Source: Gemmatimonadaceae bacterium | GTDB taxonomy: Bacteria; Gemmatimonadota; Gemmatimonadetes; Gemmatimonadales; Gemmatimonadaceae | Reading direction: 5' to 3' | Assembly: GCA_025929535.1 (NCBI GenBank) | Contig: JAICLZ010000003.1 | Location: 1-64,000, forward strand | Length of the DNA: 64,000 nt | Shown: piece by piece, positions 16,756-39,291 of the stretch | How the letters are laid out: the number at the start of each line of letters is the position of its first letter | How positions within the stretch are numbered: the stretch's first letter is position 1 | Made by a program: the position numbers and the translations under genes | The notes under the pieces: model-generated | Told to the model about the DNA's origin: nothing | Database searches by the model: none | Seen by the model: the letters and a program-made list of their open reading frames with translations, nothing else

Positions 16756-18018
16756 TCACCCCGCTACGGGTGCCCTCGCATTTTCCACGGGCGCGGCGGG
16801 CGCCGAACGCGGGATGTCGATCACGAACGATGTGCCTTTGCCGTTCACGCCGGTCGACGTGGCGGTGATGTGCCCGCCGTGCGCCTCCACGATCTCCTTC
16901 GCGATCAGGAGTCCGAGCCCCGTGCCTGGCGCCGCACGCGTCGCCTCTCCGGTCAACCTGTGATACTTGGCGAAGAGCGTGGGAATGAGCTTCGGATCGA
17001 TGCCGGCTCCGGTATCCGCCACCGTGAGGCGCGCGCGCTCATTCCCGGCATGGAGCGAGAGCGTGATCGTTCCCGCTTCCGTGTACTTGATGGCATTCGA
17101 GAGCAGGTTCTCGAGCGCCTGCTCCAGCTTCGCGCCATCGGCAATCGCCACCACTCCTGCTGCCGGCACATCCACGCTCAATCTGAGATTCTTCACGCCA
17201 GCCTGCAGCGCCGCGGTCGAGGCCGCACGCCGCGCGACCTCCACCAGGTCGGTCGCCTCGCGGTCGAGGTGCAGGTAGCCCGCGTCGATCTTGGCATAAT
17301 CGAGATAGTCGTTGATCAGGCGCATCAACTTCTCGGCGGCATTCGACGCGATCTCCACGAACTGACGCTGCTTCGGCATCAGCGGCTCGGCCTTGCCCTC
17401 CAGCAGCATCTTCGTGGCGACGCGCACGTTCCCCGCCGGGTTGCGGAGATCGTGCGTGACGATGGAATAGAAGTCGGCCTTGGACTGCTGCAGGAGCTCG
17501 ATCTCTTCCATCGCGGCCTGCAACTCCGACACGCGCTCGGCGAGCGCCCGCTGGCTCGCACAGAGCGCCGCCGCGATCTGACTGCGGCGACGCTGGTTGA
17601 GACACGCGCCCGAGTGATAGCGCACGCGCGCGAGGAGCTCGATGCGATCCGGCAGCTTCACGATGTAGTCGCTCGCACCGTTCGCGAACGCTTCCTGCTT
17701 CACGCGCGCGTCTTCCTTGGTGGACAGCACGACGATCGGGGTCTCGGCGGTGGGCTCGTTCGCGCGAAGACGACGCAGAAGCTCGAGTCCGTCGGCATTC
17801 GGCATCACGAGATCGAGCAGGATGACCGTGGGAGCGATGTCGTTCGCGGTCTCGATCGCCTCGAGCGGATCGACACAAAAGTGAAATGCGAGGTCGCTCG
17901 CGTCGGCGAGCAGTCGGCGCATGGCCTCCCCAACGAATTGCTGATCGTCTATGAGGAGCACCATGCCGGTCACCGGCGTGGGCGCCGCGTTCGCATCGGA
18001 GAGTTGTCGAGTGCTCAT
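16756..18018 (-). CDS. Receiver-histidine kinase, output protein of the Wsp-like operon
   Basis: 420 residues. A receiver domain (about 18-135) is intact: IDD acidic pair, phospho-acceptor Asp69 in LLDLVMP, Ser/Thr in LSTKED, Lys121. A coiled-coil linker (150-180) leads to a HisKA dimerisation domain with His189 in VTHDLRNP and a HATPase_c domain with N-box Asn308 (LLSNAIKY), DTGAGID and GTGLGL. There is no membrane helix, so it is cytoplasmic. The ATG at 18018 forms an ATGA overlap with the stop of cheB. In Wsp operons this slot holds WspR, a receiver-GGDEF diguanylate cyclase; here the receiver is joined to a kinase, so the signal should pass to a further phosphorelay partner. No such partner is next door. 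Confidence 0.92.
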   Translation of the reverse strand: MSTRQLSDANAAPTPVTGMVLLIDDQQFVGEAMRRLLADASDLAFHFCVDPLEAIETANDIAPTVILLDLVMPNADGLELLRRLRANEPTAETPIVVLSTKEDARVKQEAFANGASDYIVKLPDRIELLARVRYHSGACLNQRRRSQIAAALCASQRALAERVSELQAAMEEIELLQQSKADFYSIVTHDLRNPAGNVRVATKMLLEGKAEPLMPKQRQFVEIASNAAEKLMRLINDYLDYAKIDAGYLHLDREATDLVEVARRAASTAALQAGVKNLRLSVDVPAAGVVAIADGAKLEQALENLLSNAIKYTEAGTITLSLHAGNERARLTVADTGAGIDPKLIPTLFAKYHRLTGEATRAAPGTGLGLLIAKEIVEAHGGHITATSTGVNGKGTSFVIDIPRSAPAAPVENARAPVAG

Positions 18019-19067
18019 GAAGTGTGGTGCTGGGGGAATGCGCGTGCCGGCGACGCGCGGCGGGAAGGTTCGAGAAGCTCGCAAATCAGCGGGCCGACAC
18101 GCGCCAGTGGCACGACGTCGGTCGCGGCTTTCAGCTCGGCTGCCGCCCCCGGCATTCCGTAGACGGCGGACGTTGCCTTGTCCTGCGCGATGGTGCACGC
18201 GCCCGACGCGCGAAGCTCGTGAAGTCCCACAGCGCCGTCGCGCCCCATGCCCGACAGCACGACGCCGACAGCGATGCCTCGCCAATTCTTCGCGATGCTC
18301 GAGAACAACACGTCTGCAGACGGCCGGTAGGGCACGTCGAGCGGCTCGGCCTGATGCCCGAGTCGCCCGTCCGGACGCACGATGAGATGCGTATCGCCAG
18401 CGGCCAGATACACGAATCCCGGAAGCGGCTTCAATCCATCCGTGGCCACGCGAACCGTGAGCGCGCACTGACTGTCGAACCATTCGGCCATCGAGTCCAC
18501 GAACTCGGCGTCCACGTGTTGCACGACGAGCACTGCCGCTGGAAGGTTGGCCGAGAGATCGCGCAACACGTGTGCGACGGCGGGAGGGCCGCCCGCGGAT
18601 GCGCCGATGGCGATGAGCGCCGTCGCGGGTGCTCCGTCAGAGGGCGCCGCGGTGTGCGTGAGCGGTGAGTAGGCGACGCCGAGCTGTCCGATCAGCCGAA
18701 TCTTCGCGAGGAGCGCACTCGCGGACGTATCGCGAGTACCCGAGGACAGCGTGGGCGTGCTGACCACATCCAGCGCCCCGGCACCCATTGCAGCAAACAC
18801 CTTGCTCGTGTTGCGTGTGACGTCACCGGTCACGACGAGGATGGCGCAGGGCGTGGCGGCCATGATTCGCCTCGTGGCCTCCACGCCATCCATCACGGGC
18901 ATGATGAGATCCATGAGGACGACATCCGGGCGCTCGGCGGCGCACCGCCGCACGGCTTCCGCTCCGTCTCTCGCCACCCATGCAACGGTGTACGCCGGAA
19001 CTGAGAGCAGCGCGCGGCGCAGCGCCTCGACCGCGAGCGGCTCGTCGTTGACGATTGCGACCCTCAC
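18015..19067 (-). CDS. cheB: Chemotaxis methylesterase CheB (WspF-like)
   Basis: 350 residues. The receiver domain has Asp53 in LMDLIMP; the usual conserved receiver Lys is replaced in GALDVVSTPT, a feature I associate with WspF proteins. The CheB catalytic domain shows Ser157 in IGASAGGP, His184 in VVQHVD and Asp277 in SGMGRDG, so it should be an active protein-glutamate methylesterase that resets the receptor. The GTG at 19067 forms a GTGA overlap with the stop of the CheA gene, and its own stop overlaps the kinase start. Position and sequence fit the adaptation enzyme of a Wsp-type pathway. Confidence 0.95.
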   Translation of the reverse strand: MRVAIVNDEPLAVEALRRALLSVPAYTVAWVARDGAEAVRRCAAERPDVVLMDLIMPVMDGVEATRRIMAATPCAILVVTGDVTRNTSKVFAAMGAGALDVVSTPTLSSGTRDTSASALLAKIRLIGQLGVAYSPLTHTAAPSDGAPATALIAIGASAGGPPAVAHVLRDLSANLPAAVLVVQHVDAEFVDSMAEWFDSQCALTVRVATDGLKPLPGFVYLAAGDTHLIVRPDGRLGHQAEPLDVPYRPSADVLFSSIAKNWRGIAVGVVLSGMGRDGAVGLHELRASGACTIAQDKATSAVYGMPGAAAELKAATDVVPLARVGPLICELLEPSRRASPARAFPQHHTS

Positions 19068-21244
19068 GCGCTTCCGCCGATGAAATCCTCGATGGCGCGA
19101 AGCATGGTCTCGTCGTAGAAGCTGCCCTTGGTGAGGTAGTAGTCCGCGCCCGCGTCGAGGCCGCGGCGCCGATCCTCATCGCGGTCCTTGTACGATACGA
19201 TCATCACCGGAATCGTCTTCAGCGCGGCATCGCGCTTGATGAGCGTGACGAGCTCGATCCCATCCATCCGCGGCATGTCGACGTCGGTCACCACGAGATC
19301 GTAGTGGCCGCCGCGCATGGCGTTCCAGCCATCCATCCCATCCACTGCCACGTCCACCGCATAGCCCAGGCTCTCGATCATCTTGCGCTCGAGCTCGCGA
19401 ACGGTGAGGGAATCGTCGACCACCAGCACCCGCTTCCTGGTCTTCGCCGGAGCGGACTCCTTGCGCATGGGATCCAGTCGCCCACCGGCGGCCAGCGTCG
19501 ATGCCGTGCGCATGACGTCATCCACATCGAGCACGAGCAGCGGCGATCCGTCGGGGAGCAGCGATGCTCCGCCAACGTCCTGCACCTTCTGCAATCGCGC
19601 ATCGAGTCCGCGCAGCACGATCTCCTGCTCGCCCATGAAGCGATCGACGACGATGCCCCACGTTGCCTCGTGGTCACCGATCACGACCACGCTCATGCTG
19701 TCCTTTGGCTCCGCAGCGCCGATGTCGAGCAGCTGGTGTCCCCACACGACACCCACCTGACGACCGTCCAGCGTGAAGTGCTGGCGCCCCTCCACGGACG
19801 AGAGCTCGGAGCTCTCCACGCGCACGATCCGATGCACGCGCGCGAGCGGGAACGCGTACGGCTCGTTGCCGATGAGAACCACGAGCGCGCGAATCACCGA
19901 AAGCGTGAGCGGCAGCTGCATGTCGAAGCGCATGCCGCCGGATGGCGGATGCACGAGGCGAACATCGCCGCCGATCTCGCGCACGCTCATCTGCACCGCA
20001 TCGAGCCCGACACCGCGGCCGGAGATCGGAGTCACCTCATCCCGCATCGTGAAGCCCGGAAGGAAGAGGAAATGCGAGAGCTCCGCATCGCTCATCTCCG
20101 CCACCGCCTGCGGCTCGGCGAGTCCGCGGCCGATCACTCGTGCGCGCACCGCCGCGAAGTCGAGCCCGCGCCCGTCATCCTGCACGCTCACGAGGAGGCG
20201 CCCGCCACCGTGCCGGGCTTCGACGCGAATCGTTCCGCGCGCCGACTTACCTCGTGCCAGCCGCTCATCACTCGCCTCGATGCCGTGGTCCACGGCATTG
20301 CGGATGAGATGGCCGAGCGGCGCGTCGAGTCGTCGCAGCACTTCGCGATCCACCGGTGTCGTCTCGCCGGAAGTGACGAGCGTGACCTCGCGGCCGAGCG
20401 TTCGCGCGGTGTCACGCACCAGGCGAGGCAGTCCGACGATTCCGTCGCCGAAGGGAAGCATGCGGGCGTCGAGCACACCCTCATAGAGATGCGAGACCGC
20501 GCTCGACACGCGCAGGCTCACCGTGTCGAGCGCGATTGCGCGCTCGCGCCGAGCGGTGAGAACCGATGCGACCGCCGCGTGCAGCGCCTCGAGGGCGGGC
20601 TGCGTGTCTGCGCGGGAGCCGCGCAGAGCCGCGCCAAGGGTCTCGAGCGCGCGCTCGATCTCCTGCTCGCTGCGCTGATGCCCTCCGTCGCCCTCGACGG
20701 TCGACACCAGTGCGCGAGTCGCCACGAGCGCTTCACTCGCGAGCGTGAGCAGTCGCTCCGTGTCGTAGGACCCACCCTCGAGTCGCGCTTTCTGCGGAGA
20801 CTTGCCATTTCCGCTTGCATGGGCGACTTCGCCGGCGGGCGTGTTCGCCGGGCCGCCGCGCTCGATCGACCGCAGCGCCACCAGCATGGCCTCGCGCGCA
20901 CGCGCGGCATCGCCCGTGAGCGTGCCCGAAGGGTCGGCCAGTGCCGTCTCGCCCATGAGGTCGACGCCCTGCAGGAGCACGTCGATCTGCGATCCCGAGA
21001 TCTCGAGCTTCCCTGCCTGTGCAGCGACGAAGCACTCCTCGAGCTCGTGCGCGATCGCCGCCACCCCTTCGTGTCCCACGATGCGCGCCGCACCCTTGAG
21101 TGAGTGTGCCGCGCGCATCAGCTCGCCGAGCGCGAGAGGCGAGCGCTCGGATTCCAGTGCTATGAGTCCATCGCTGAGCTTGAGCGCCTGCGTCTTCGCC
21201 TCGAGCTGAAAGAGCGACAGGAGCGAGGAGTCATCGAAGCTCAT
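19064..21244 (-). CDS. cheA: CheA-type hybrid histidine kinase with C-terminal receiver (WspE-like)
   Basis: 726 residues. The Hpt domain has His47 in RAAHSLKG. After a variable linker come the dimerisation region (about 235-300), a HATPase domain with N-box HLIRNAVDHG (312-321), QDDGRGLD and GRGVGLD, and a CheW-like domain (about 448-590). The C-terminal receiver (604-720) has VVDDS, phospho-acceptor Asp654 in VVTDVDMP and Lys706. The receiver segment IVSYKDRDED is typical of WspE. The protein autophosphorylates at the Hpt histidine when the receptor signals. The ATG at 21244 overlaps the upstream CheW-like gene by ATGA and its stop overlaps cheB by GTGA, which implies tightly balanced expression. 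Confidence 0.95.
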   Translation of the reverse strand: MSFDDSSLLSLFQLEAKTQALKLSDGLIALESERSPLALGELMRAAHSLKGAARIVGHEGVAAIAHELEECFVAAQAGKLEISGSQIDVLLQGVDLMGETALADPSGTLTGDAARAREAMLVALRSIERGGPANTPAGEVAHASGNGKSPQKARLEGGSYDTERLLTLASEALVATRALVSTVEGDGGHQRSEQEIERALETLGAALRGSRADTQPALEALHAAVASVLTARRERAIALDTVSLRVSSAVSHLYEGVLDARMLPFGDGIVGLPRLVRDTARTLGREVTLVTSGETTPVDREVLRRLDAPLGHLIRNAVDHGIEASDERLARGKSARGTIRVEARHGGGRLLVSVQDDGRGLDFAAVRARVIGRGLAEPQAVAEMSDAELSHFLFLPGFTMRDEVTPISGRGVGLDAVQMSVREIGGDVRLVHPPSGGMRFDMQLPLTLSVIRALVVLIGNEPYAFPLARVHRIVRVESSELSSVEGRQHFTLDGRQVGVVWGHQLLDIGAAEPKDSMSVVVIGDHEATWGIVVDRFMGEQEIVLRGLDARLQKVQDVGGASLLPDGSPLLVLDVDDVMRTASTLAAGGRLDPMRKESAPAKTRKRVLVVDDSLTVRELERKMIESLGYAVDVAVDGMDGWNAMRGGHYDLVVTDVDMPRMDGIELVTLIKRDAALKTIPVMIVSYKDRDEDRRRGLDAGADYYLTKGSFYDETMLRAIEDFIGGSA

Positions 21245-21909
21245 GAGAGTGCGTGTGAAAGCGAGGCCAGCACCCGCCCGCCATCGAGCACACCCACGAT
21301 GCGATCGCCTATCGCGAGGAGCGCGCTCGCGTAGGAGATCATCGACTGGCCAAGCGTGGCCGGAACGGGGCGGAGCACGACTGGATCGTAGCGATGAATG
21401 CCCATCACCTCGTCCACCGAGATGGCGAGGCGCGCGCGGCCATCGGCGAGCACTACGACGCGCGGCGCGCTGCGACGATGACCGTTCGCGCCGGCGGGAG
21501 CCACCCCGTCATCGGGAATGCCGAGCAGCCCCGCGAGCGATACGTGGACGAGGATGTCGCCGCGCACGCTCAGCACCCCGATCTTCACCGCGCCGCGGCG
21601 ATGCGGCAGCGAATGCGTGGGCCTCGCGGAAACGACCTCGTCGAGGAGAGCCATTGGCAGAGCGAGCCACTCCAGGCCAAGTCGAAAGACGAAGCAGGAT
21701 GCGGTTGCGGCATCCTCCACCTCTCGCGGTGCGGCATAGTACGCAGTTGCCATCTCGATGGCGTCGTCTGCAATCGGTCGATCGAGACGCGTGGCCGCGG
21801 CGGCCGCGTAGGTGGGGCAGTTGCGGCAGTGGATGTGCGCGGACAACTCCGCACAACTTCTGTCGCCCGCCACGCCGATCACGTTCCAGCAATCCCTGCG
21901 TTCGGTCAT
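21241..21909 (-). CDS. wspD: CheW-like adaptor with N-terminal Cys/His cluster (WspD-like)
   Basis: 222 residues. The N-terminal 31 residues carry a Cys/His cluster: Cys7-Trp, Cys19, His25, His27, Cys28 and Cys31 (DCWNVIGVAGDRSC, HCRNCPTYA). This pattern is a hallmark of WspD-type adaptors and could bind metal. A CheW domain follows from about residue 70 (CFVFRLGLEWLALP, VLSVRGDILVHVSL). CheW proteins link receptor and CheA in the signalling array; the second adaptor in Wsp operons is thought to have a distinct scaffold role. The ATG at 21909 shares ATGA with the stop of cheR, and the 3' end shares ATGA with the CheA gene. Confidence 0.9.
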   Translation of the reverse strand: MTERRDCWNVIGVAGDRSCAELSAHIHCRNCPTYAAAAATRLDRPIADDAIEMATAYYAAPREVEDAATASCFVFRLGLEWLALPMALLDEVVSARPTHSLPHRRGAVKIGVLSVRGDILVHVSLAGLLGIPDDGVAPAGANGHRRSAPRVVVLADGRARLAISVDEVMGIHRYDPVVLRPVPATLGQSMISYASALLAIGDRIVGVLDGGRVLASLSHALS

Positions 21910-23183
21910 GGACCTGCGAACGTGTGGAAGCTGAGCGCGCGCCGTGCCCGGCTCCGGAGCTTGCTCGCGAGCGCCGACTCACCTCGCTTCTCGAGGAGGA
22001 GCGCGAGATGCAGCAGCGCGTGCTCGTGCGACGGCTCCAGAAAGAGCGCCTTCCGATAGCACGCCTCCGCGCGATCGGGTTGCGTCGTTGCCGCGTGCAG
22101 CGTACCGATCAGCGAAAACAGCTCCGCAGAGACGGCGCCCTCGCGAATGGCGCGCTCCCCCGCATCGATGGCCGTTGCAAGCTGTCCCTCGTCCGCGAGC
22201 CGGGCGACGTCGATCAACACGGACGCGGAGTCCCGCCCGGCGCTCGTCGCCGGCACCGGTTGCCGTGCGCCCGGAACCGCAGTGCGACGCCTGGGCGCAG
22301 CATCCCTCACGATCCGATTCCGTGCGGGCGGGGTGGCGATCGCACGTGGCCGCACCCGGCGCGCGACCGCGGCCGACGGCTCGGATGGGGCCGCGCTGCC
22401 CCCGCGACGAAACAGAAACGACCGCTCGCAGCCGGAGGAAGGAGCGAAGCCCGCTCTCCGCGCGGCGAACGAATCCGCGGATCCCACGGCGAGCACTCCC
22501 TCCGGCGCGAGCAGCGAAGAGATTTTCTCGAGCGCCCGTGCCTGGGCACTCTCATCGAAGTAGATGAGCAGGTTGCGGCAGAAGATCACATCGTACTGTT
22601 CGCGGGGCGGAGAGAACGTCTCCGACAGCAGGTTCCCGTGCGCCACCTGCACGACGGCTCGGACGCTCTCGTCGATCCGCCAACCCTGCGCGGTTTCGGC
22701 GAAGTACTTTCTCCACACGCTGAAATCACCGCGGAAGGAACCGGTGCGGTACACACCCTCTCGAGCCCGGCGCACGGCCTCGATGCTGATGTCGACGGCA
22801 TCGATGGACATCGACGACGCAGGCAATCCGGCGGCCAGAAGCGAGAGCGCGATCGAGTACGGCTCTTCCCCCGACGAACATGGCACGCTCAGAATGCGGA
22901 GCGGTGCGCCGCTCGAGAGCGCATGAGCATCGAGGGCGAGGCGAGTGATGTCGGCGATCGCATCGGGCTCGCGAAAGAAATACGTCTCGGGGATCACCAC
23001 CTCTTCGATGAGCTCCTGCAGCTCGTGCTCATCATCGGCCAGCAGCTTCACGTACGCATCGACGCTGACGATTGCGCGCTTCGACATGCGGCGCTGCGCG
23101 GCGCGCGCGATGAGCGAGCCCCCGACGGTGGATGCATCGAGCCCGATCTCGTCGCGAAGGATGCGCTCGATCTCGTCACTCAC
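21906..23183 (-). CDS. cheR: CheR methyltransferase with C-terminal TPR region (WspC-like)
   Basis: 425 residues. The all-alpha CheR N-terminal domain contains the ETYFFREPDA motif. The SAM-binding Rossmann domain starts at about residue 96 (ILSVPCSSGEEPYS) and includes DISIEAVRRAR and IFCRNLLIYF. After a basic Pro/Ala-rich linker there is a TPR-like C-terminus (about 330-415: ACYRKALFLEPSHEHALLHLALLLE), as in WspC. It should methylate glutamates of the neighbouring receptor. The GTG at 23183 makes a GTGA overlap with the stop of cheW; upstream extensions in this frame run through cheW and are not real. Its stop overlaps the next gene (ATGA). Confidence 0.93.
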   Translation of the reverse strand: MSDEIERILRDEIGLDASTVGGSLIARAAQRRMSKRAIVSVDAYVKLLADDEHELQELIEEVVIPETYFFREPDAIADITRLALDAHALSSGAPLRILSVPCSSGEEPYSIALSLLAAGLPASSMSIDAVDISIEAVRRAREGVYRTGSFRGDFSVWRKYFAETAQGWRIDESVRAVVQVAHGNLLSETFSPPREQYDVIFCRNLLIYFDESAQARALEKISSLLAPEGVLAVGSADSFAARRAGFAPSSGCERSFLFRRGGSAAPSEPSAAVARRVRPRAIATPPARNRIVRDAAPRRRTAVPGARQPVPATSAGRDSASVLIDVARLADEGQLATAIDAGERAIREGAVSAELFSLIGTLHAATTQPDRAEACYRKALFLEPSHEHALLHLALLLEKRGESALASKLRSRARRALSFHTFAGP

Positions 23184-23659
23184 GCCGCGAGCACCGTTCG
23201 AAAGAGCGCGCTTCGCAGCTCTTCGTTCAGGAGCGCCGGGAGCAAGAGCTGCTGAAGGACGCCATCCCCGGTCGTGAGCACCTCGCCCAGATATTGCGCG
23301 CGCTCGTTCCGGATTCCCACCGGCTCGAAGCGGCCGGTGTCGAAATGCGCGGTCTCCATCACCTCCGGCACGATCAGCCCCAGCATTCCGGAGCCCTCCC
23401 CGCCTGCTGCCGGCTCGTAACGCACGACGACGATCCGTGTCATCATGCGCGGCGGCGTGGCGGCGCCGAACGCGATGATTCCGAGATCGACGACCGGAAT
23501 CGCACTGCCCCGAAAGCTCATCATTCCCACCACGCCCGCGGGCGCGCACGGGATGTTCTTGAGACGAACGACCGGAAGTACCTCGATCACGCAGCCGGCG
23601 TCGATGGCATAGCGGTCCGCACCCAGGCGCAGCAGCAGGAAGAGCGACCGAGCGGACAT
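23180..23659 (-). CDS. cheW: CheW adaptor (WspB-like)
   Basis: 159 residues, essentially a single CheW domain (LFLLLRLGADRYAID, VVGMMSFRGSAIPVVDL, GLIVPEVMET). It joins the receptor tip to the kinase. It lies between the MCP gene (3-bp gap) and cheR (4-bp GTGA overlap), which is exactly the WspB position. Nothing unusual is seen in the sequence. Confidence 0.92.
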   Translation of the reverse strand: MSARSLFLLLRLGADRYAIDAGCVIEVLPVVRLKNIPCAPAGVVGMMSFRGSAIPVVDLGIIAFGAATPPRMMTRIVVVRYEPAAGGEGSGMLGLIVPEVMETAHFDTGRFEPVGIRNERAQYLGEVLTTGDGVLQQLLLPALLNEELRSALFRTVLAA

Positions 23660-23662
23660 CGG

Positions 23663-25273
23663 TCAGGCCGCCAGTGTGAAGCGCGAGACGCCACTCTGGA
23701 GTCCGCGTGAGGCATCGTTGAGCTGGTCGATCGCCATGCTCGACTGCCGCAGCGAGTCCGCCGTCTGCTGCGAGGCCACGCTCAGCTGCGCCAGCGCCTC
23801 ACTGATCTGCGCCGCGCTGATCGACTGCGACTGCACCCCCTCGTTCACACTCTCGAAAGACGGCGGCAGCGTCTGCACCTGCGAGATGATCTCCGTCAGC
23901 TGCGTCGTCACCGCGCCGATCGCCTCCCGCCCCCGCCGCACCTCGTCCGCGAACTTGTCGATCCCCATCACCCCCGCGCTCACCGCGCTCTGCATCTCCT
24001 TGACGATCTGCTCGATGTCGAACGTCGCCACCGCCGTCTGATCCGCCAGCCGCCGGATCTCGCGCGCCACCACGGCAAAGCCCCGCCCGTGCTCCCCTGC
24101 CTTCTCCGCCTCGATCGCCGCGTTCAGCGACAACAGGTTCGTCTGGTCGGCCACCTTGCTGATCGTCGTCACCACCATGCCGATGTTCGTCGCCTTCTCG
24201 CTCAACAGCGCGAGCCGCGAGTTGATGAGATCCGAGGCCGCCCCGATCTGCCCCATCGTCGACTCCATCCGCTGGAGCCCGCCCTGGCCGCCCTGCGCCA
24301 GCGTCGAGGTCTGGTCCGCCACCTCCGAGAGCTCGGCCATCGTGCGCGCGAGCTCCTTGGAGGTGGCCGAGATGCGCGAGGCGGTCGCGCCCACTTCGGC
24401 CGTGGTGGCCGCGATCTCGGTCACGGTCGCCTGCTGCTGCTTGGACGTGGCCGCGATCTCCGTGGCCGAGCTGTTCACCTGCACCCCCGACTTCTGTACC
24501 TGCCCGATGAGATTCGTGAGATCGTCGGCCATGCGGTTGATTCCCTCGCCGAGCATCCCGAGCTCATCGCGGCGAACGATCTCGACGCGCTGGCGAAAGT
24601 CGCCAGCGCTCATCACCGCGGTGACGGACATGAGTCTCGCGAACGCGCTCTGAATGAGACGCACGAGCAGCCACGAGCAGACCACTGCGACGAGCGTTGC
24701 GAACAGAAGTGCGGGTCCGAGCGTCCACAGCGATTTGTTCGCCGACGAGGTGATGTCGGTCGTCGCTCCAACGCCCTGCGCTCGATTGAGATCGAACAGC
24801 GAGTCGCCGAGCTTGACGTATTCCTCCAGCGGCGGCTGCAGCCGGCCGGTGAGCTCTTCGGGGCTGATCGTTTCGTCGGCCCTCGCGAGCTCGTACTCCT
24901 TCGCGAATCGATCGCGCGCGTCCTTCATCGCGACGAAGAGCTGCCGATCGCTCTCGTCGATGATCGTCGCCTGGTACGCCTCGTCGATCTGCAGCGCGAC
25001 CTGCAGCAGCTGCTCGACCTTGTCCGCCGAGAGCTGCTTGTCGCGTGCGGTAACGGCGGCCGAGTGCTTGGTCACCGCCAGCAGCAGCTCGCGCGCGAGC
25101 GTCTGGGATTTCGCGGAGACTACGACGCCCGGGAGCACATCCTTTTCAATCTGGCGCGCCTGTGCGCGAATCGTCTGCAGCCCGGCATAGCTCACGGCGC
25201 CGAGCGCAACCATGATGGTGATCACCGCGGCAAAGGCGCCGATGATCCGCGTGCGGACGGTCCAGTTGCTCAT
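23663..25273 (-). CDS. Methyl-accepting chemotaxis receptor (WspA-like), first gene of the operon
   Basis: 536 residues. TM1 is at about 10-31 and TM2 at about 183-205. Between them lies a periplasmic four-helix-bundle sensor of about 150 residues. A HAMP domain (206-255) and a long cytoplasmic coiled coil follow, with the conserved hairpin tip around residue 385 (EAEKAGEHGRGFAVVA, EIRRLADQ). There is no C-terminal CheR-docking pentapeptide. In the Wsp system the receptor senses surface contact or envelope stress rather than a diffusible attractant; whether that holds here is not known. The ATG at 25273 leads straight into TM1. The 120-bp gap upstream should hold the operon promoter. Confidence 0.93.
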   Translation of the reverse strand: MSNWTVRTRIIGAFAAVITIMVALGAVSYAGLQTIRAQARQIEKDVLPGVVVSAKSQTLARELLLAVTKHSAAVTARDKQLSADKVEQLLQVALQIDEAYQATIIDESDRQLFVAMKDARDRFAKEYELARADETISPEELTGRLQPPLEEYVKLGDSLFDLNRAQGVGATTDITSSANKSLWTLGPALLFATLVAVVCSWLLVRLIQSAFARLMSVTAVMSAGDFRQRVEIVRRDELGMLGEGINRMADDLTNLIGQVQKSGVQVNSSATEIAATSKQQQATVTEIAATTAEVGATASRISATSKELARTMAELSEVADQTSTLAQGGQGGLQRMESTMGQIGAASDLINSRLALLSEKATNIGMVVTTISKVADQTNLLSLNAAIEAEKAGEHGRGFAVVAREIRRLADQTAVATFDIEQIVKEMQSAVSAGVMGIDKFADEVRRGREAIGAVTTQLTEIISQVQTLPPSFESVNEGVQSQSISAAQISEALAQLSVASQQTADSLRQSSMAIDQLNDASRGLQSGVSRFTLAA

Positions 25274-34984: not shown

Positions 34985-36175
34985 CTACTGCACCGCGTTG
35001 ATCATGTCGAAGATCGGCAGATACATCGCGACCACCATGCCACCCACGATCACGCCCAGGAACACGATCATCACCGGCTCCATCAAGCTCAGAAGCCCGC
35101 TGACCGCGGTGTCGACCTCGGTATCGTAAAAGTCCGCGATCTTGGTCAGCATCTCGTCCAGACCACCCGTCTGCTCGCCGACCGCGATCATCGAGATCAC
35201 CATCGGCGGGAACACGTTCGACTTCTGCAGCGGGGCCGAGATCGTGTCGCCGCCGGCGATGCTCGCGCGCGACTCCATGATCGCATCGTGAATGACGCGG
35301 TTGCCCGCCGTCTTCGCCGTGATCTCGAGGCCGTCGAGAATGCTCACGCCGGACGAGATCAGCGTGCCCAGCGTGCGCGTGAAGCGCGACACCGCCGACT
35401 TGCGGAGCATGTCGCCCAGCACCGGGACCTTGAGCAGCAGCTTGTCGATGTTGAGCTGCCCGTTCGCCGTCTTGTAGTAGCGCTTGAGCGAGAACACGGT
35501 GAACCACGCGCCGCCGCCAACCGCCCACCAGAAGTGCTTGAGGAAGCTCGAGAGCATGATCACGATGCGCGTCGGCAGCGGGAGCGCCAAGTTCACGCTC
35601 GCGAACATGTTCTCGAACACCGGAATGACGAAGATCAGGAGCGTCACGATCGCGATGAAGGCCACGCTCATGATGACGGCCGGGTAGATCATCGCACTCT
35701 TCACCTTGCCCACCAGCGCGTCGTTCTTTTCGAGGAACGTCGCCAGTCGCATCAGAATCGTGTCGAGAATACCACCCGCCTCACCGGCGGCCACCATGTT
35801 CACGTACAGGTCCGTGAACGCCTGAGGATGGCGGCGCAGCGCGTCGGCCACCGTGTGCCCCGACTCGACGTCGTACACCACCTGGTGCGTCACATCCTGC
35901 AGCGCCTTGTTCTCGCTCTGCCGCGAGAGAATGTCGAGCGCCTGCACGAGCGGCAGACCGGAGTTGATCATCGTCGAGAACTGACGCGTGAAGATGACGA
36001 TGTCGCGCGTCTTGACCTTCCCGCCCTTCTTCTTCTTCGTCTCCTCGTCCACCTTGACGACGACGAGCTTCTGTCGCCGCAGGTTCGCGACGACCTCGTC
36101 GCGGTTCGCGGCTTCCATCGTGGCGTTCTTGAGCTCACCGCCCAGCGTGCGCGCCGTATAGGCAAATGTTGGCAT
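34985..36175 (-). CDS. pilC: Type IV pilus inner-membrane platform protein PilC
   Basis: 396 residues. Two GspF/T2SSF domains (about 68-190 and 270-392) each have the conserved aromatic-rich stretch (IVIFTRQFSTMINSGLPLVQALDIL; VSRFTRTLGTLISSGVSILDGLEI) and three membrane helices overall, ending YLPIFDMINAVQ. The start MPTFAYTARTLGGEL is the usual PilC N-terminus. It forms the platform on which the PilB and PilT motors extend and retract the pilus. It lies 23 bp after pilT in the same operon and is followed by a strong stem-loop. Confidence 0.96.
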   Translation of the reverse strand: MPTFAYTARTLGGELKNATMEAANRDEVVANLRRQKLVVVKVDEETKKKKGGKVKTRDIVIFTRQFSTMINSGLPLVQALDILSRQSENKALQDVTHQVVYDVESGHTVADALRRHPQAFTDLYVNMVAAGEAGGILDTILMRLATFLEKNDALVGKVKSAMIYPAVIMSVAFIAIVTLLIFVIPVFENMFASVNLALPLPTRIVIMLSSFLKHFWWAVGGGAWFTVFSLKRYYKTANGQLNIDKLLLKVPVLGDMLRKSAVSRFTRTLGTLISSGVSILDGLEITAKTAGNRVIHDAIMESRASIAGGDTISAPLQKSNVFPPMVISMIAVGEQTGGLDEMLTKIADFYDTEVDTAVSGLLSLMEPVMIVFLGVIVGGMVVAMYLPIFDMINAVQ

Positions 36176-36198
36176 GTATGCTCCTCAGACGATTCCGA

Positions 36199-37362
36199 TT
36201 ACCGCTTGCCCGCGGCGGCGTACTTGGCGTGCTGTCCAGCGAGCTTCGGTGCGTCGCCGTTGGCGACATCGTCCATCGGCGACTCGCCGATCATGCGCAG
36301 GAACTCGTTCTGGTCGCCCGACACACGCAGGCACTCGTCGAGCACCACTTCGCGCGACATGTACAGGTTGTACAGCGCGTCGTTGAGCGTCTGCATGCCG
36401 AACTTCTTTCCCGACTGCATGGACGAGTTGATCTGGTGGATCTTGTTGTCGCGGATCAGCGCCCGAATCGCCGGCGTCACCACCAGGATCTCCGCGGCCA
36501 TCGCGCGGCCGCGTCCCTTCGAACGCGGCAGGAGCGTCTGCGTCACGATCCCCTCGAGCACGAACGCGAGCTGCGCGCGCACCTGCCCCTGCTGGTGACT
36601 CGGAAACACGTCGATCATGCGGTTGATCGCTTCTGCCGCCGAATTCGTGTGCAGCGTCGCGAAGCAGAGGTGTCCCGTTTCGGCGATCGTCAGCGCGGCC
36701 TGCATCGTCTCCAGATCGCGCATTTCGCCCACGAGGATCACGTCCGGATCTTCACGCAGCGAATACTTGAGCGCGTTGGAGAAGCTCTTCGTGTCCGTGC
36801 CGACCTCGCGCTGGTTGACGATGCAGCTCTGGTGACGGTGGATGAACTCGATCGGATCTTCCACCGTGATGATGTGGCCGCGACGCTCGCGATTGATCTT
36901 GTCGATCATCGCCGCCAGCGTCGTGCTCTTTCCCGATCCCGTCGGTCCCGTCACCAGCACGAGCCCGCGCGGACGCTCGGCCATCTTCGCCACGGCATTA
37001 GGCAGCCCCAGCTCCTCGAACGTACGGATGTTGAACGGGATCTGTCGAATCACGAGCGAGACGCAGCCGCGCTGCTTGAAGCAGTTGCCTCGAAAGCGAG
37101 CGAGGTTCTGAATGCCGAACGAGAAGTCGAGCTCGTCCTCGGTCTCGAACCGCTTCTTCTGGTTCTCCGTGAGAATCGAGTAGGCGAGCTGCAACGTGTC
37201 CTTCGGGGTCAGCACCACCTCGACGTTCGCGTCGGTGATGTCGCCGTCGATGCGCAATTTCGGCTTGTCACCCGCGGTGATGTGCAAATCGGACGCGTCC
37301 CGCTCGATCATTTCCTCGAGCAACGCGCGCAGGTTGACGGTGTTGGCGACAGGGGCAGTCAA
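36199..37362 (-). CDS. pilT: Type IV pilus retraction ATPase PilT
   Basis: 387 residues. The PAS-like N-terminal domain starts LRALLEEMIERDASDLHITAG. Walker A is GPTGSGKST, the Asp box is ITVEDPIEF, and Walker B is DPDVILVGEMRD. A His box follows. The AIRxLIR-type motif (AIRALIRDNKIHQI) is specific to PilT retraction motors. The C-terminal tail (after about residue 355) is slightly longer than usual. It powers pilus retraction for twitching and DNA uptake. It sits 93 bp after pilB and 23 bp before pilC. Confidence 0.96.
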   Translation of the reverse strand: MTAPVANTVNLRALLEEMIERDASDLHITAGDKPKLRIDGDITDANVEVVLTPKDTLQLAYSILTENQKKRFETEDELDFSFGIQNLARFRGNCFKQRGCVSLVIRQIPFNIRTFEELGLPNAVAKMAERPRGLVLVTGPTGSGKSTTLAAMIDKINRERRGHIITVEDPIEFIHRHQSCIVNQREVGTDTKSFSNALKYSLREDPDVILVGEMRDLETMQAALTIAETGHLCFATLHTNSAAEAINRMIDVFPSHQQGQVRAQLAFVLEGIVTQTLLPRSKGRGRAMAAEILVVTPAIRALIRDNKIHQINSSMQSGKKFGMQTLNDALYNLYMSREVVLDECLRVSGDQNEFLRMIGESPMDDVANGDAPKLAGQHAKYAAAGKR

Positions 37363-37455
37363 TGTGACTCCTGTGAGGTAACGATCCCGGGGAGCGGGAT
37401 ACCCCCTATAGACGAGGGAATGGGACGAGCGTTGCAGGGAGGCGCCGACGCCCCT

Positions 37456-39291
37456 TTACGCCGCAGTCTCGCGGATGACCTGATCCAGCGTGCAGATCCC
37501 CTTCATCACCTTGAGCAGTCCGTCCATGCGGAGCGTCAGCATTCCATCCTCGACCGCTCCCTTCTGAATCTCGGCCGCGCCCACGCTCTGCATCACGAGC
37601 TTGCGCACCTTCGGGGTCATGAGCATGACCTCGTACAGCCCCTGGCGCCCCTTCATTCCGCTGCCGGCACAGGCGTCGCAACCGCGCCCGCGGAAGAACG
37701 GCATCTCCGCGATGGTCGTGTCGAGATTGAAGTCCTTCACGATGGGAGCCGCATCCTTCGTCGCCATCCGTTTCATGTTCTGGATGGCCTCATCCGTGTA
37801 CATCAGGCTCCGGAAGGTCATGTCCGGCTTGAGCTTGGCCGCGTTCAGCTCCAGAGCATCGGGCTCGTACCGCGCGCGGCACGTATTGCAGATCTTGCGC
37901 ACGAGCCGCTGTGCCAGAACGAGATTGAGCGCGGACGCGACGTTGAACGGCTCGAGCCCCATGTCCATGAGGCGCGTCACCGTTTCCGGCGCCGAGTTCG
38001 TGTGCAGCGTGGACATCACGAGGTGGCCCGTGAGCGCCGCCTTGATGGCGATGCCGCCCGTCTCCAGATCTCGAATCTCTCCGATCATGATGATGTTCGG
38101 ATCCTGGCGCAAAAACGCCTTCAGCGCCGCCGCGAACGTCAGCCCGATGTCGGTGCGCACGAGCACCTGGTTGATCCCGAAGATGTTGTACTCGACGGGA
38201 TCTTCCGCCGTCATGATGTTGACGTCGATGTTGTTGACCTTCGACAGCGCCGAGTAGAGCGTGGTGGTCTTTCCGGATCCCGTTGGACCGGTGACGAGCA
38301 CCATGCCGTACGGGTTGGCCACCGCCTCCATCAGATCCGACTCGGCGCGCGGCTCGATGCCGAACTTCTCGAGGTCGAGCGTCAGATTCCCCTTGTCGAG
38401 AATTCGGAGCACGACCTTCTCGCCGAACAGCGTGGGCAGCGTCGACACGCGATAGTCGATGACCTTCTTGCCGATCTTCAGCTTGATGCGCCCGTCCTGC
38501 GGCACGCGGCGCTCGGCGATGTTCAGATTCGACATGATCTTGAAGCGCGAGATGAGCGCCGCCTTCAGCTTCATGGGCGGCTTCATCACTTCCTGCAGTG
38601 CGCCATCGATGCGGTAGCGCACGCGCATCTCGTGCTCGTAGCACTCGAAGTGAATGTCCGAGGCGCCCTTCTTCACGGCATCCGTCAGGATTCCGTTGAT
38701 CAGCTTCACGACCGGTGCGTCATCGATCGCGGCCGCGAGCACCGAGGCGCTGACTTCCTCATCCCGTTCCTCGACGACCTCGACATCTCCGTCGTCGTCG
38801 TCGATGTCATCGAGGATGTTCTGCAGCGCGTCGTCGGTATTCTCGCCGTAGTGCTTGTCGACGGCGTTCCGGAGCGTGTATTCCCCGGCGATGACGGGGA
38901 AGATGTCGTAGCGCGTGATGAACTTGAGATCGTCTATGACGCCAAGGTCGGACGGATCGGCCATCGCGACCGTGAGCGTGCGCCCTTCGCGCTTGAGCGG
39001 GAGCACCAGATGGCGCTGAGCCAGCTCGGAGGGAATGAGCTTCGCAATGCGCGCATCGACCTCGAAGTTCGTGAGGTCGACCGCCGGCATCCGGAACTGG
39101 CGCGCGAGCATGCGGGTGAGCTCGACCTCGTTGATGAAGCCGAGCTTCACGAGGTTGTAGCCGATCCGCATGCCGCTGGTTTTCTGCTCCTGAAGCGCGC
39201 GATCCATCGCCTCGCGCGTGATGAGCCCCTCGCGCAGGAGGAGATCACCGAGACGTTCACCCGCGGCTACGGCTGCTGGTGCGACGGCCAT
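37456..39291 (-). CDS. pilB: Type IV pilus extension ATPase PilB
   Basis: 611 residues. The N-terminal MshEN/GspE_N domain (about 10-160; GERLGDLLLREGLIT) is a known c-di-GMP-binding module in some relatives. The ATPase core has Walker A GPTGSGKTT, Asp box MTAEDPVEY, Walker B DPNIIMIGEIRD and the tetracysteine zinc site CNTC...CDAC. The lengthened acidic stretch around residues 155-175 (ILDDIDDDDGDVEVVEERDEE) is unusual. It polymerises the pilus on the PilC platform. The ATG at 39291 follows a 77-bp gap containing a stem-loop, so it may have its own promoter or leader. Confidence 0.96.
   Translation of the reverse strand: MAVAPAAVAAGERLGDLLLREGLITREAMDRALQEQKTSGMRIGYNLVKLGFINEVELTRMLARQFRMPAVDLTNFEVDARIAKLIPSELAQRHLVLPLKREGRTLTVAMADPSDLGVIDDLKFITRYDIFPVIAGEYTLRNAVDKHYGENTDDALQNILDDIDDDDGDVEVVEERDEEVSASVLAAAIDDAPVVKLINGILTDAVKKGASDIHFECYEHEMRVRYRIDGALQEVMKPPMKLKAALISRFKIMSNLNIAERRVPQDGRIKLKIGKKVIDYRVSTLPTLFGEKVVLRILDKGNLTLDLEKFGIEPRAESDLMEAVANPYGMVLVTGPTGSGKTTTLYSALSKVNNIDVNIMTAEDPVEYNIFGINQVLVRTDIGLTFAAALKAFLRQDPNIIMIGEIRDLETGGIAIKAALTGHLVMSTLHTNSAPETVTRLMDMGLEPFNVASALNLVLAQRLVRKICNTCRARYEPDALELNAAKLKPDMTFRSLMYTDEAIQNMKRMATKDAAPIVKDFNLDTTIAEMPFFRGRGCDACAGSGMKGRQGLYEVMLMTPKVRKLVMQSVGAAEIQKGAVEDGMLTLRMDGLLKVMKGICTLDQVIRETAA

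What the first reader, a model, noticed from the sequence alone, without database searches (positions are those of the whole stretch)
16756..25273. Wsp-type surface-signalling operon whose output is a receiver-histidine kinase rather than a diguanylate cyclase
Seven genes in the exact Wsp order (MCP, CheW, CheR-TPR, WspD-type CheW with N-terminal Cys/His cluster, CheA-REC, CheB) end with a soluble REC-HisKA-HATPase protein in the slot of WspR. Six consecutive junctions are joined by gaps of 3 bp or 4-bp ATGA/GTGA overlaps, so the output protein belongs to the unit. The receiver and kinase residues are intact. In the known Wsp pathway the receiver controls c-di-GMP synthesis; here the signal should go into a new phosphorelay whose target is unknown.
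Basis: partly seen in the sequence, partly recalled or inferred. Interest (0 to 1): 0.72.

Follow-up and report, generated by a model that had tools for sequence, protein, structure and literature searches.

The report
Wsp operon wired to histidine kinase
A bacterium, probably a gemmatimonad, carries a Wsp-type (surface-sensing) chemosensory operon whose last gene joins the usual Wsp receiver to a histidine kinase instead of a c-di-GMP-making enzyme; this has a known precedent in Burkholderia, but it turns out to be one of several output swaps spread over several bacterial phyla where Wsp was thought to be absent.

Summary
Seven co-directional genes (window 16756-25273, minus strand) lie in Wsp order and end in a soluble REC-HisKA-HATPase protein. 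All junctions are 3-bp gaps or 4-bp overlaps, and all signalling residues are intact. The core is truly Wsp-type: CheA is 45-50% identical full length to Wsp CheAs, and the closest solved structures to the output receiver plus stalk are the two WspR structures.

The claim of novelty is only partly right. Burkholderia WspH is a published Wsp output of the same architecture, and REC-kinase regulators are common in CheR-TPR clusters. What is new is range and repetition. Wsp operons or Wsp-class receivers occur in Gemmatimonadota (inferred taxon, 2 of about 395 genomes), Verrucomicrobiota, Acidobacteriota, Planctomycetota, Cyanobacteriota and alphaproteobacteria, against the published "only beta/gamma; WspH only in Burkholderia; never 3'". 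On this receiver the effector is GGDEF, histidine kinase, SpoIIE-type phosphatase or nucleotide cyclase. Kinase fusions keep one helical register (52, 45, 17 residues, all 3 modulo 7). No WspR-class receiver exists elsewhere in the genome.

Most likely mechanism: CheA phosphorylates Asp69; the receiver-stalk helix switches the kinase at His189, which controls an unlinked response regulator. The target is unidentified; indirect c-di-GMP control is not excluded.

The parts
23663..25273 (-). WspA-type chemoreceptor (MCP): 4HB_MCP_1 sensor region, HAMP, MCP signalling domain, 536 aa
   Evidence: Pfam PF12729, PF00672, PF00015 above cut-off; first in Wsp order
23180..23659 (-). WspB-type CheW, 159 aa
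   Evidence: Pfam PF01584; 3-bp gap after MCP
21906..23183 (-). WspC-type CheR methyltransferase with C-terminal TPR, 425 aa, GTG start overlapping the CheW stop
   Evidence: Pfam PF01739, weak TPR_16; NCBIfam CheR/TPR matches; start codon
21241..21909 (-). WspD-type CheW with N-terminal CWNxIGxxGDxSC...HCRNCP cluster, 222 aa
   Evidence: Pfam PF01584; cluster conserved in WspD proteins
19064..21244 (-). WspE-type CheA with C-terminal receiver (Hpt-HATPase-CheW-REC), 726 aa; H47, D654
   Evidence: Pfam; 45-50% identity full length to Wsp CheAs; CheA tree
18015..19067 (-). WspF-type CheB methylesterase with receiver, 350 aa, GTG start; D53
   Evidence: Pfam PF01339, PF00072; NCBIfam NF009206 above cut-off
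16756..18018 (-). Output protein: WspR-class receiver + helical stalk + HisKA-HATPase kinase, 420 aa
   Evidence: Pfam; 4-bp overlap with CheB; same gene at same place in G214
17617..17964 (-). WspR-class receiver domain (aa 19-134), acceptor D69 (codon 17812-17814)
   Evidence: PDB 3BRE WspR 158 bits and 3I5A WspR 154 bits, next PleD 57 bits; profile A2
17455..17616 (-). Stalk helix joining receiver to kinase (aa 135-188), predicted continuous with receiver alpha-5 and DHp helix 1 (aa 125-206)
   Evidence: AlphaFold2 model, single helix 125-206; heptad register 52/45/17
16807..17487 (-). HisKA-HATPase kinase module (aa 178-404), phospho-acceptor H189 (codon 17452-17454)
   Evidence: Pfam PF00512, PF02518; residues

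Best explanation
This is a genuine Wsp-type chemosensory operon in which the effector of the output protein is a histidine kinase. Shown from sequence: a Wsp core (receptor, two CheWs, CheR-TPR, CheA-REC, CheB) translationally coupled to a protein made of the WspR-class receiver and stalk fused to a HisKA-HATPase kinase. Inferred: receptor clusters control CheA; CheA~P (H47) phosphorylates D69 of the output receiver and D53 of CheB, CheB giving the adaptation/off signal through receptor demethylation and the CheA receiver acting as a sink or modulator. Phosphorylation of D69 changes receiver pairing and is passed along one continuous, heptad-phased helix to the kinase dimerisation helix, setting autophosphorylation (or phosphatase activity) at H189. 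The kinase then controls a response regulator encoded elsewhere, as proposed for WspH-RowR in Burkholderia and shown for CheA3-CheS3-CheY3 in Rhodospirillum centenum. The Wsp receiver-stalk acts as a common adaptor onto which different effectors have been fused repeatedly; this operon is one such variant.
For: Gene order, coupling and residues. Conserved in a second genome at 62-64% CheA identity, with the same 3' gene. Receiver plus stalk (aa 12-163) matches P. aeruginosa WspR at 158 bits against 57 bits for the best non-WspR structure. No other WspR-class receiver in the genome. Of about 390 genomes of the phylum, only this one and G214 carry the Wsp-type CheA or the receiver, so core and output co-occur. 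Kinase fusions on Wsp receivers in Burkholderia, Verrucomicrobiota, one genome of the Planctomycetota search (L248) and here have stalk lengths of 17, 52, 45 and 52, all 3 modulo 7. AlphaFold2 predicts one helix from 125 to 206 through H189. Published precedents: CheA3 phosphorylates REC1 of the kinase CheS3 (PMC3868531); WspH suppressors and RowR (PMC4324302).
Against: No biochemistry. No response regulator or Hpt is linked in this genome or in G214; 24 REC stretches lack a HATPase within 3.5 kb, so the target cannot be named. Direction of control (kinase on or off) is unknown; in CheS3 receiver phosphorylation inhibits. The register argument was noticed after the fact, and linkers before HisKA are often heptad-phased anyway. 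The AlphaFold2 model is a monomer from a 9-row alignment (mean pLDDT 78, pTM 0.50) and gives no dimer or complex. Operon expression is inferred from overlaps only; no sigma-70-like promoter was found.
Confidence: 0.72

Rival explanations
1. The final outcome is still c-di-GMP: the kinase phosphorylates an unlinked REC-GGDEF (or REC-HD-GYP) response regulator, so the Wsp signal reaches c-di-GMP by one extra step.
For: The genome has nine GGDEF matches, several fused to receivers, including one with an intact GGEEF motif and no HATPase within 3.5 kb (L265, C135), and two REC-HD proteins without a nearby kinase (L263, L264).
Against: None of these receivers is WspR-class and none is linked. In Burkholderia the H-system did not alter c-di-GMP (PMC8552884).
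Confidence: 0.2
2. The last protein is an inverted hybrid kinase: its own H189 feeds D69, and the receiver is a phosphate sink or relay, with CheA acting only on CheB.
For: Receiver and kinase are in one chain; CheA3 of R. centenum uses its attached receiver as a sink (PMC3868531).
Against: The receiver is the WspR class, i.e. the class WspE phosphorylates in Pseudomonas, and is kept at 50-63% identity to WspR-class receivers with quite different effectors; the CheS3 kinase did not phosphorylate its own REC1.
Confidence: 0.1
3. The last gene is an orthologue of Burkholderia WspH: one ancient REC-HK gene, kept 3' here and moved or transferred to the 5' side in Burkholderia.
For: WspH is among the better full-length single-piece tblastn matches in the plasmid collection (33-34%). 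The receiver trees (AU p 0.23 and 0.68) and the kinase tree (p 0.23) do not reject a common clade.
Against: The CheA cores do not group (AU p 0.006) and Burkholderia's core is nested among WspR-bearing relatives. Kinase modules are no more alike than unrelated kinases (the best hits of the Burkholderia WspH kinase outside Burkholderia are unrelated kinases at 83 bits or less; the window kinase is not among its top 22). Stalks differ by 35 residues. No HisKA match for WspH at E 0.001.
Confidence: 0.12
4. The arrangement is an assembly artefact or a chance neighbour, with the kinase not part of the Wsp system.
For: The window comes from a draft genome of 145 contigs.
Against: 4-bp overlap with cheB, a WspR-class receiver, and the same arrangement in G214 and similar ones in other phyla.
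Confidence: 0.02

Closest known systems
Burkholderia cenocepacia Wsp H-system (WspH / WspHRR)
   Same: Wsp core whose output is a WspR-class receiver fused to a histidine kinase without GGDEF; the target is thought to be an unlinked response regulator (RowR)
   Different: wspH lies 5' of the operon as a separate unit; short stalk (17 against 52 residues); kinase module unrelated at the level of close homology; CheA core nested among WspR systems of Burkholderiales
Pseudomonas Wsp R-system (WspA-F, WspR)
   Same: Gene order, CheR-TPR, WspD Cys cluster, CheA-REC, receiver and stalk class of the output protein, 3' position of the output gene
   Different: Effector is a histidine kinase, not a diguanylate cyclase
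Rhodospirillum centenum Che3 (CheA3-CheS3-CheY3)
   Same: A CheA-REC hybrid phosphorylates the receiver of a second histidine kinase, which feeds a response regulator
   Different: CheS3 is REC-REC-PAS-HWE kinase, with CheY3 in the cluster; here the kinase is a single REC with HisKA and no linked regulator
REC-HK regulators of CheR-TPR / ACF clusters (survey PMC3447774)
   Same: REC fused to HisKA-HATPase in a CheR-TPR cluster; about 40% of such regulators
   Different: In the passages read, the survey does not separate Wsp-class receivers from others nor trace effector exchange on one receiver
Verrucomicrobiota Wsp operons with REC-HK-REC(-REC)(-Hpt) (L090, L096, L098, L100, L101, L114, L144)
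   Same: 3' Wsp-class receiver fused to a HisKA kinase with an identical 52-residue stalk distance
   Different: Hybrid kinases with extra receivers and, in some, Hpt; the kinase module belongs to another branch (AU p 0.010 against one clade)

Membership tests
Wsp chemosensory system | wspA-B-C-D-E-F gene order in one unit | tested here: met
Wsp chemosensory system | CheA (WspE) with C-terminal receiver falling in the Wsp clade | tested here: met
   45-50% identity full length; falls with Wsp CheAs, apart from other CheAs of the phylum (100*)
Wsp chemosensory system | CheR with TPR (WspC) | tested here: met
   PF01739; TPR_16 E 8e-4, below its cut-off; other TPR-model matches at the C terminus
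Wsp chemosensory system | Output protein carries a WspR-class receiver | tested here: met
   3BRE and 3I5A best, 154-158 bits against 57; profile A2
Wsp chemosensory system | Responds to surface contact | not testable with these tools
   needs experiments
Wsp R-system (WspR) | Output is a REC-GGDEF diguanylate cyclase | tested here: not met
   REC-HisKA-HATPase; no WspR-class REC-GGDEF in the genome
Burkholderia Wsp H-system (WspH) | REC fused to a histidine kinase, no GGDEF | tested here: met
Burkholderia Wsp H-system (WspH) | Output gene 5' of the operon, separate unit | tested here: not met
   3' gene overlapping cheB by 4 bp
Burkholderia Wsp H-system (WspH) | Common ancestry of the REC-HK gene with WspH | tested here: inconclusive
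   CheA core: one clade rejected, p 0.006; receiver and kinase trees do not reject it
Burkholderia Wsp H-system (WspH) | RowR-type (REC-wHTH) target | not testable with these tools
   an unlinked OmpR-type regulator exists (L267), but no test of pairing was possible
R. centenum Che3-type CheA-to-kinase relay | CheA phosphorylates the receiver of the second kinase | not testable with these tools
   needs purified proteins
R. centenum Che3-type CheA-to-kinase relay | HWE kinase with PAS and tandem REC, CheY in the cluster | tested here: not met
   HisKA kinase, single REC, no CheY gene in the operon

The most novel reading that the evidence does not exclude
The Wsp core with its receiver-stalk is a phylum-spanning sensory module with exchangeable outputs: on one conserved receiver the effector has been replaced several times by GGDEF, histidine kinase (at least three separate recruitments), SpoIIE-type phosphatase or class III cyclase, kinase fusions keeping one heptad phase. 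c-di-GMP would then be only the proteobacterial output of Wsp, and this REC-HK form, on the earliest CheA branch in the present tree, may even precede WspR.
Probability: 0.6. Interest if true: 0.68.

Novelty: new variant of a known kind. Interest (0 to 1): 0.52.

Why it matters
Wsp is a standard model for how bacteria turn surface contact into biofilm through c-di-GMP, and a 2021 survey states that it exists only in beta- and gammaproteobacteria, with only WspR or WspH as outputs. The sequences here contradict that: Wsp cores or Wsp-class receivers occur in several other phyla, with at least four effector types on the same receiver. This makes a general question directly testable: whether one receiver-stalk conformational switch drives unrelated enzymes, which can be addressed with chimeras of laboratory WspR and with phosphotransfer assays on this REC-HK.

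Tried and rejected
Displaced WspR elsewhere in the genome: rejected. One of the searches for this used a wrong reading frame and is not relied on. Linked Hpt or regulator partner: none in the operon; Hpt matches lie on other contigs (C31, C98) beside receivers. Target prediction from distance between REC and HATPase genes: leaves 24 REC stretches, no way to choose. Conserved downstream partner in G214: downstream genes look like trmFO, a recombinase and hslV (my reading of the translations), unrelated. Kinase families in NCBIfam: no equivalog above cut-off. Receiver tree to decide whether WspH arose from the native WspR or was imported: 132-134 columns do not resolve it. Intrinsic terminator after the last gene: a GCCGGAG/CTCCGGC hairpin is visible, but it is not listed by the scan and its fold is no better than shuffles. 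Control for the heptad register on non-Wsp REC-HKs: only 3 cases, uninformative. No paper on Wsp in Gemmatimonadota was found in the searches made. A Pfam call failed on wrong coordinates and was repeated.
Full report
1. What is there. Seven genes run on the minus strand from 25273 to 16756: MCP, CheW, CheR-TPR, CheW with an N-terminal Cys/His cluster, CheA-REC, CheB, and a 420-aa soluble REC-HisKA-HATPase protein. The MCP/CheW junction is a 3-bp gap; the other five junctions are 4-bp overlaps. The receiver (D24, D25, D69, T100, K121), kinase (H189, N308, D335, GTGLGL at 365), CheA (H47, D654) and CheB (D53, S157, H184, D277) residues are intact. There is no GGDEF in the unit.

2. It is a real Wsp system, not merely a lookalike. 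The CheA is 45-49% identical over 98% of its length to CheAs encoded in Wsp order in Burkholderia, Variovorax, Novosphingobium, Cupriavidus, Azoarcus and Mesorhizobium. In the CheA tree it falls with them, away from the other CheAs of its own phylum. The N-terminal 163 residues of the last protein match the two WspR structures, 3BRE (158 bits) and 3I5A (154 bits); the best other structure, PleD, scores 57 bits, and the match runs into the WspR stalk. WspD's CWNxIG...C...HCRNC cluster is present in 79 of 84 WspD proteins (my count from the listing).

3. Whose genome. A neighbouring serine hydrolase is 68% identical to one of Gemmatirosa kalamazoonensis, the next organism being at 50%; single-contig relatives of 4.6-5.2 Mb in the same family also fit Gemmatimonadaceae (this reading of sizes is from my own knowledge). 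I therefore write Gemmatimonadota as an inference.

4. Distribution. In about 390 genomes of the phylum the Wsp-type CheA and the WspR-class receiver each occur in only two, this one and G214 of the same family. G214 has CheW2-CheA-CheB-REC-HK in the same order, with REC 78% and kinase 66% identical, so the arrangement is neither an assembly fault nor a private accident. A scan of genome contigs with the CheA alignment gave 80 loci. Besides Proteobacteria they include Verrucomicrobiota, Planctomycetota, Acidobacteriota and Cyanobacteriota. A profile of the Wsp receiver found it in 23 of 338, 9 of 347 and 16 of 343 genomes of the phyla of L096, L108 and L122. Matches taken as members score about 145-237 bits; the next best receivers in five test genomes score 85 or less.

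5. Outputs on this receiver. In operons or in fused form: REC-GGDEF in Proteobacteria; REC-HK 5' of the operon in Burkholderia (WspH); REC-HK 3' here and in G214; REC-HK-REC(-REC)(-Hpt) 3' in Verrucomicrobiota; REC-SpoIIE phosphatase in several phyla; REC-Guanylate_cyc in cyanobacteria; a short form with a possible zinc ribbon in L090 and L108. One genome (L248) has CheB followed by REC-HK-REC although its receiver lies inside the phosphatase group. Parsimony needs at least six changes of output on the CheA tree and ten on the less resolved receiver tree. Loci whose terminal protein escaped my motif filter (48) are not in the receiver-based counts.

6. Where this variant stands. Window and G214 are sister to all other Wsp CheAs, but the outgroup branch is long (1.94), so this may be a rooting effect. 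Holding their CheAs together with Burkholderia's H-system is rejected (p 0.006); holding them with the Verrucomicrobiota kinase systems is not (p 0.43). For the kinase module the result is the reverse: with Verrucomicrobiota rejected (p 0.010), with Burkholderia not rejected (p 0.23). The simplest reading is separate recruitment of kinase modules; common origin with WspH is not excluded because the receiver tree is too short to tell.

7. How it most likely works. CheA~P should phosphorylate D69, since the receiver is of the class that WspE phosphorylates in Pseudomonas. The receiver's last helix, the stalk and the first kinase helix are predicted as one helix, 125-206, with H189 in it (monomer, mean pLDDT 78, pTM 0.50). 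The distance from the conserved His-Ser at the receiver end to the kinase histidine is 52 here, in G214 and in the Verrucomicrobiota fusions, 45 in L248 and 17 in Burkholderia: all 3 modulo 7. This fits transmission through a coiled coil. It was noticed afterwards, and heptad phasing before HisKA is common, so I treat it as support only. The kinase would then act on an unlinked regulator: 24 REC stretches in the genome have no HATPase within 3.5 kb, including an OmpR-type regulator (L267) and REC-GGDEF and REC-HD proteins, so a return to c-di-GMP by one more step is possible.

8. What was known. WspH/WspHRR of B. cenocepacia is a Wsp output with REC and kinase; its wsp mutants change colony form without changing c-di-GMP, and RowR is the proposed target (PMC8552884, PMC4324302). 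That 2021 study states that Wsp is exclusive to beta- and gammaproteobacteria, that the H-system is restricted to Burkholderia and that no 3' H-system was found. The loci here contradict the first statement directly; they contradict the other two if 'H-system' is taken to mean any Wsp core with a REC-kinase output. A 2012 survey reported that about 40% of regulators in CheR-TPR clusters carry a kinase module and proposed that receiver phosphorylation modulates it (PMC3447774). In R. centenum CheA3 phosphorylates the receiver of the kinase CheS3, inhibiting it, and CheS3 feeds CheY3 (PMC3868531). A freshwater Planctomycetes study already mentions Wsp genes in that phylum (PMC6461901).

9. Verdict. 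I file it as a new variant of the Wsp system: a 3' REC-HK form in a new phylum, and one example of repeated effector exchange on a conserved Wsp receiver.

Noticed in passing
window 21241-21909 (WspD) and loci L043-L169: WspD proteins carry a conserved N-terminal CWNxIG-x(8-10)-C-x(about 8)-HCxxC cluster (79 of 84 examined, absent in G214 and four others); it looks like a metal site, and a search of the paper library gave no paper evidently about it.
   Followed up: partly
L205, L211-L257 (Verrucomicrobiota, Acidobacteriota, Planctomycetota searches): Many Wsp-class receivers are fused to SpoIIE-type phosphatases (24 of 67), the commonest output outside Proteobacteria in this sample.
   Followed up: partly
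L127, L128, L130 (cyanobacteria): Wsp operons with altered order (CheW-CheR-MCP-CheW-CheA-CheB) end in REC fused to a class III adenylate/guanylate cyclase domain.
   Followed up: partly
L090 11180-12013 and L108 4977-5876: Wsp receivers with a short C-terminal CxxCK...CPxCY module, possibly a zinc ribbon; in L090 it sits between CheB and a second Wsp REC-HK.
   Followed up: no
window 34985-39291: Genes that read like pilC, pilT and pilB (type IV pilus or type II secretion) lie about 10 kb from the Wsp operon; type IV pili are a usual surface organelle.
   Followed up: no
G000:C4:126131-126814 (L007, L261): An orphan receiver fused to a degenerate GGDEF domain; its receiver is the nearest to WspR's among those compared in this genome (40%) but not of the Wsp class.
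   Followed up: no
L046, L045, L110, L113, L115, L118, L132, L140: Complete Wsp R-systems in alphaproteobacteria (Mesorhizobium, Novosphingobium, Bosea, Kaistia and others), some on plasmids, although the 2021 survey places Wsp only in beta- and gammaproteobacteria.
   Followed up: partly
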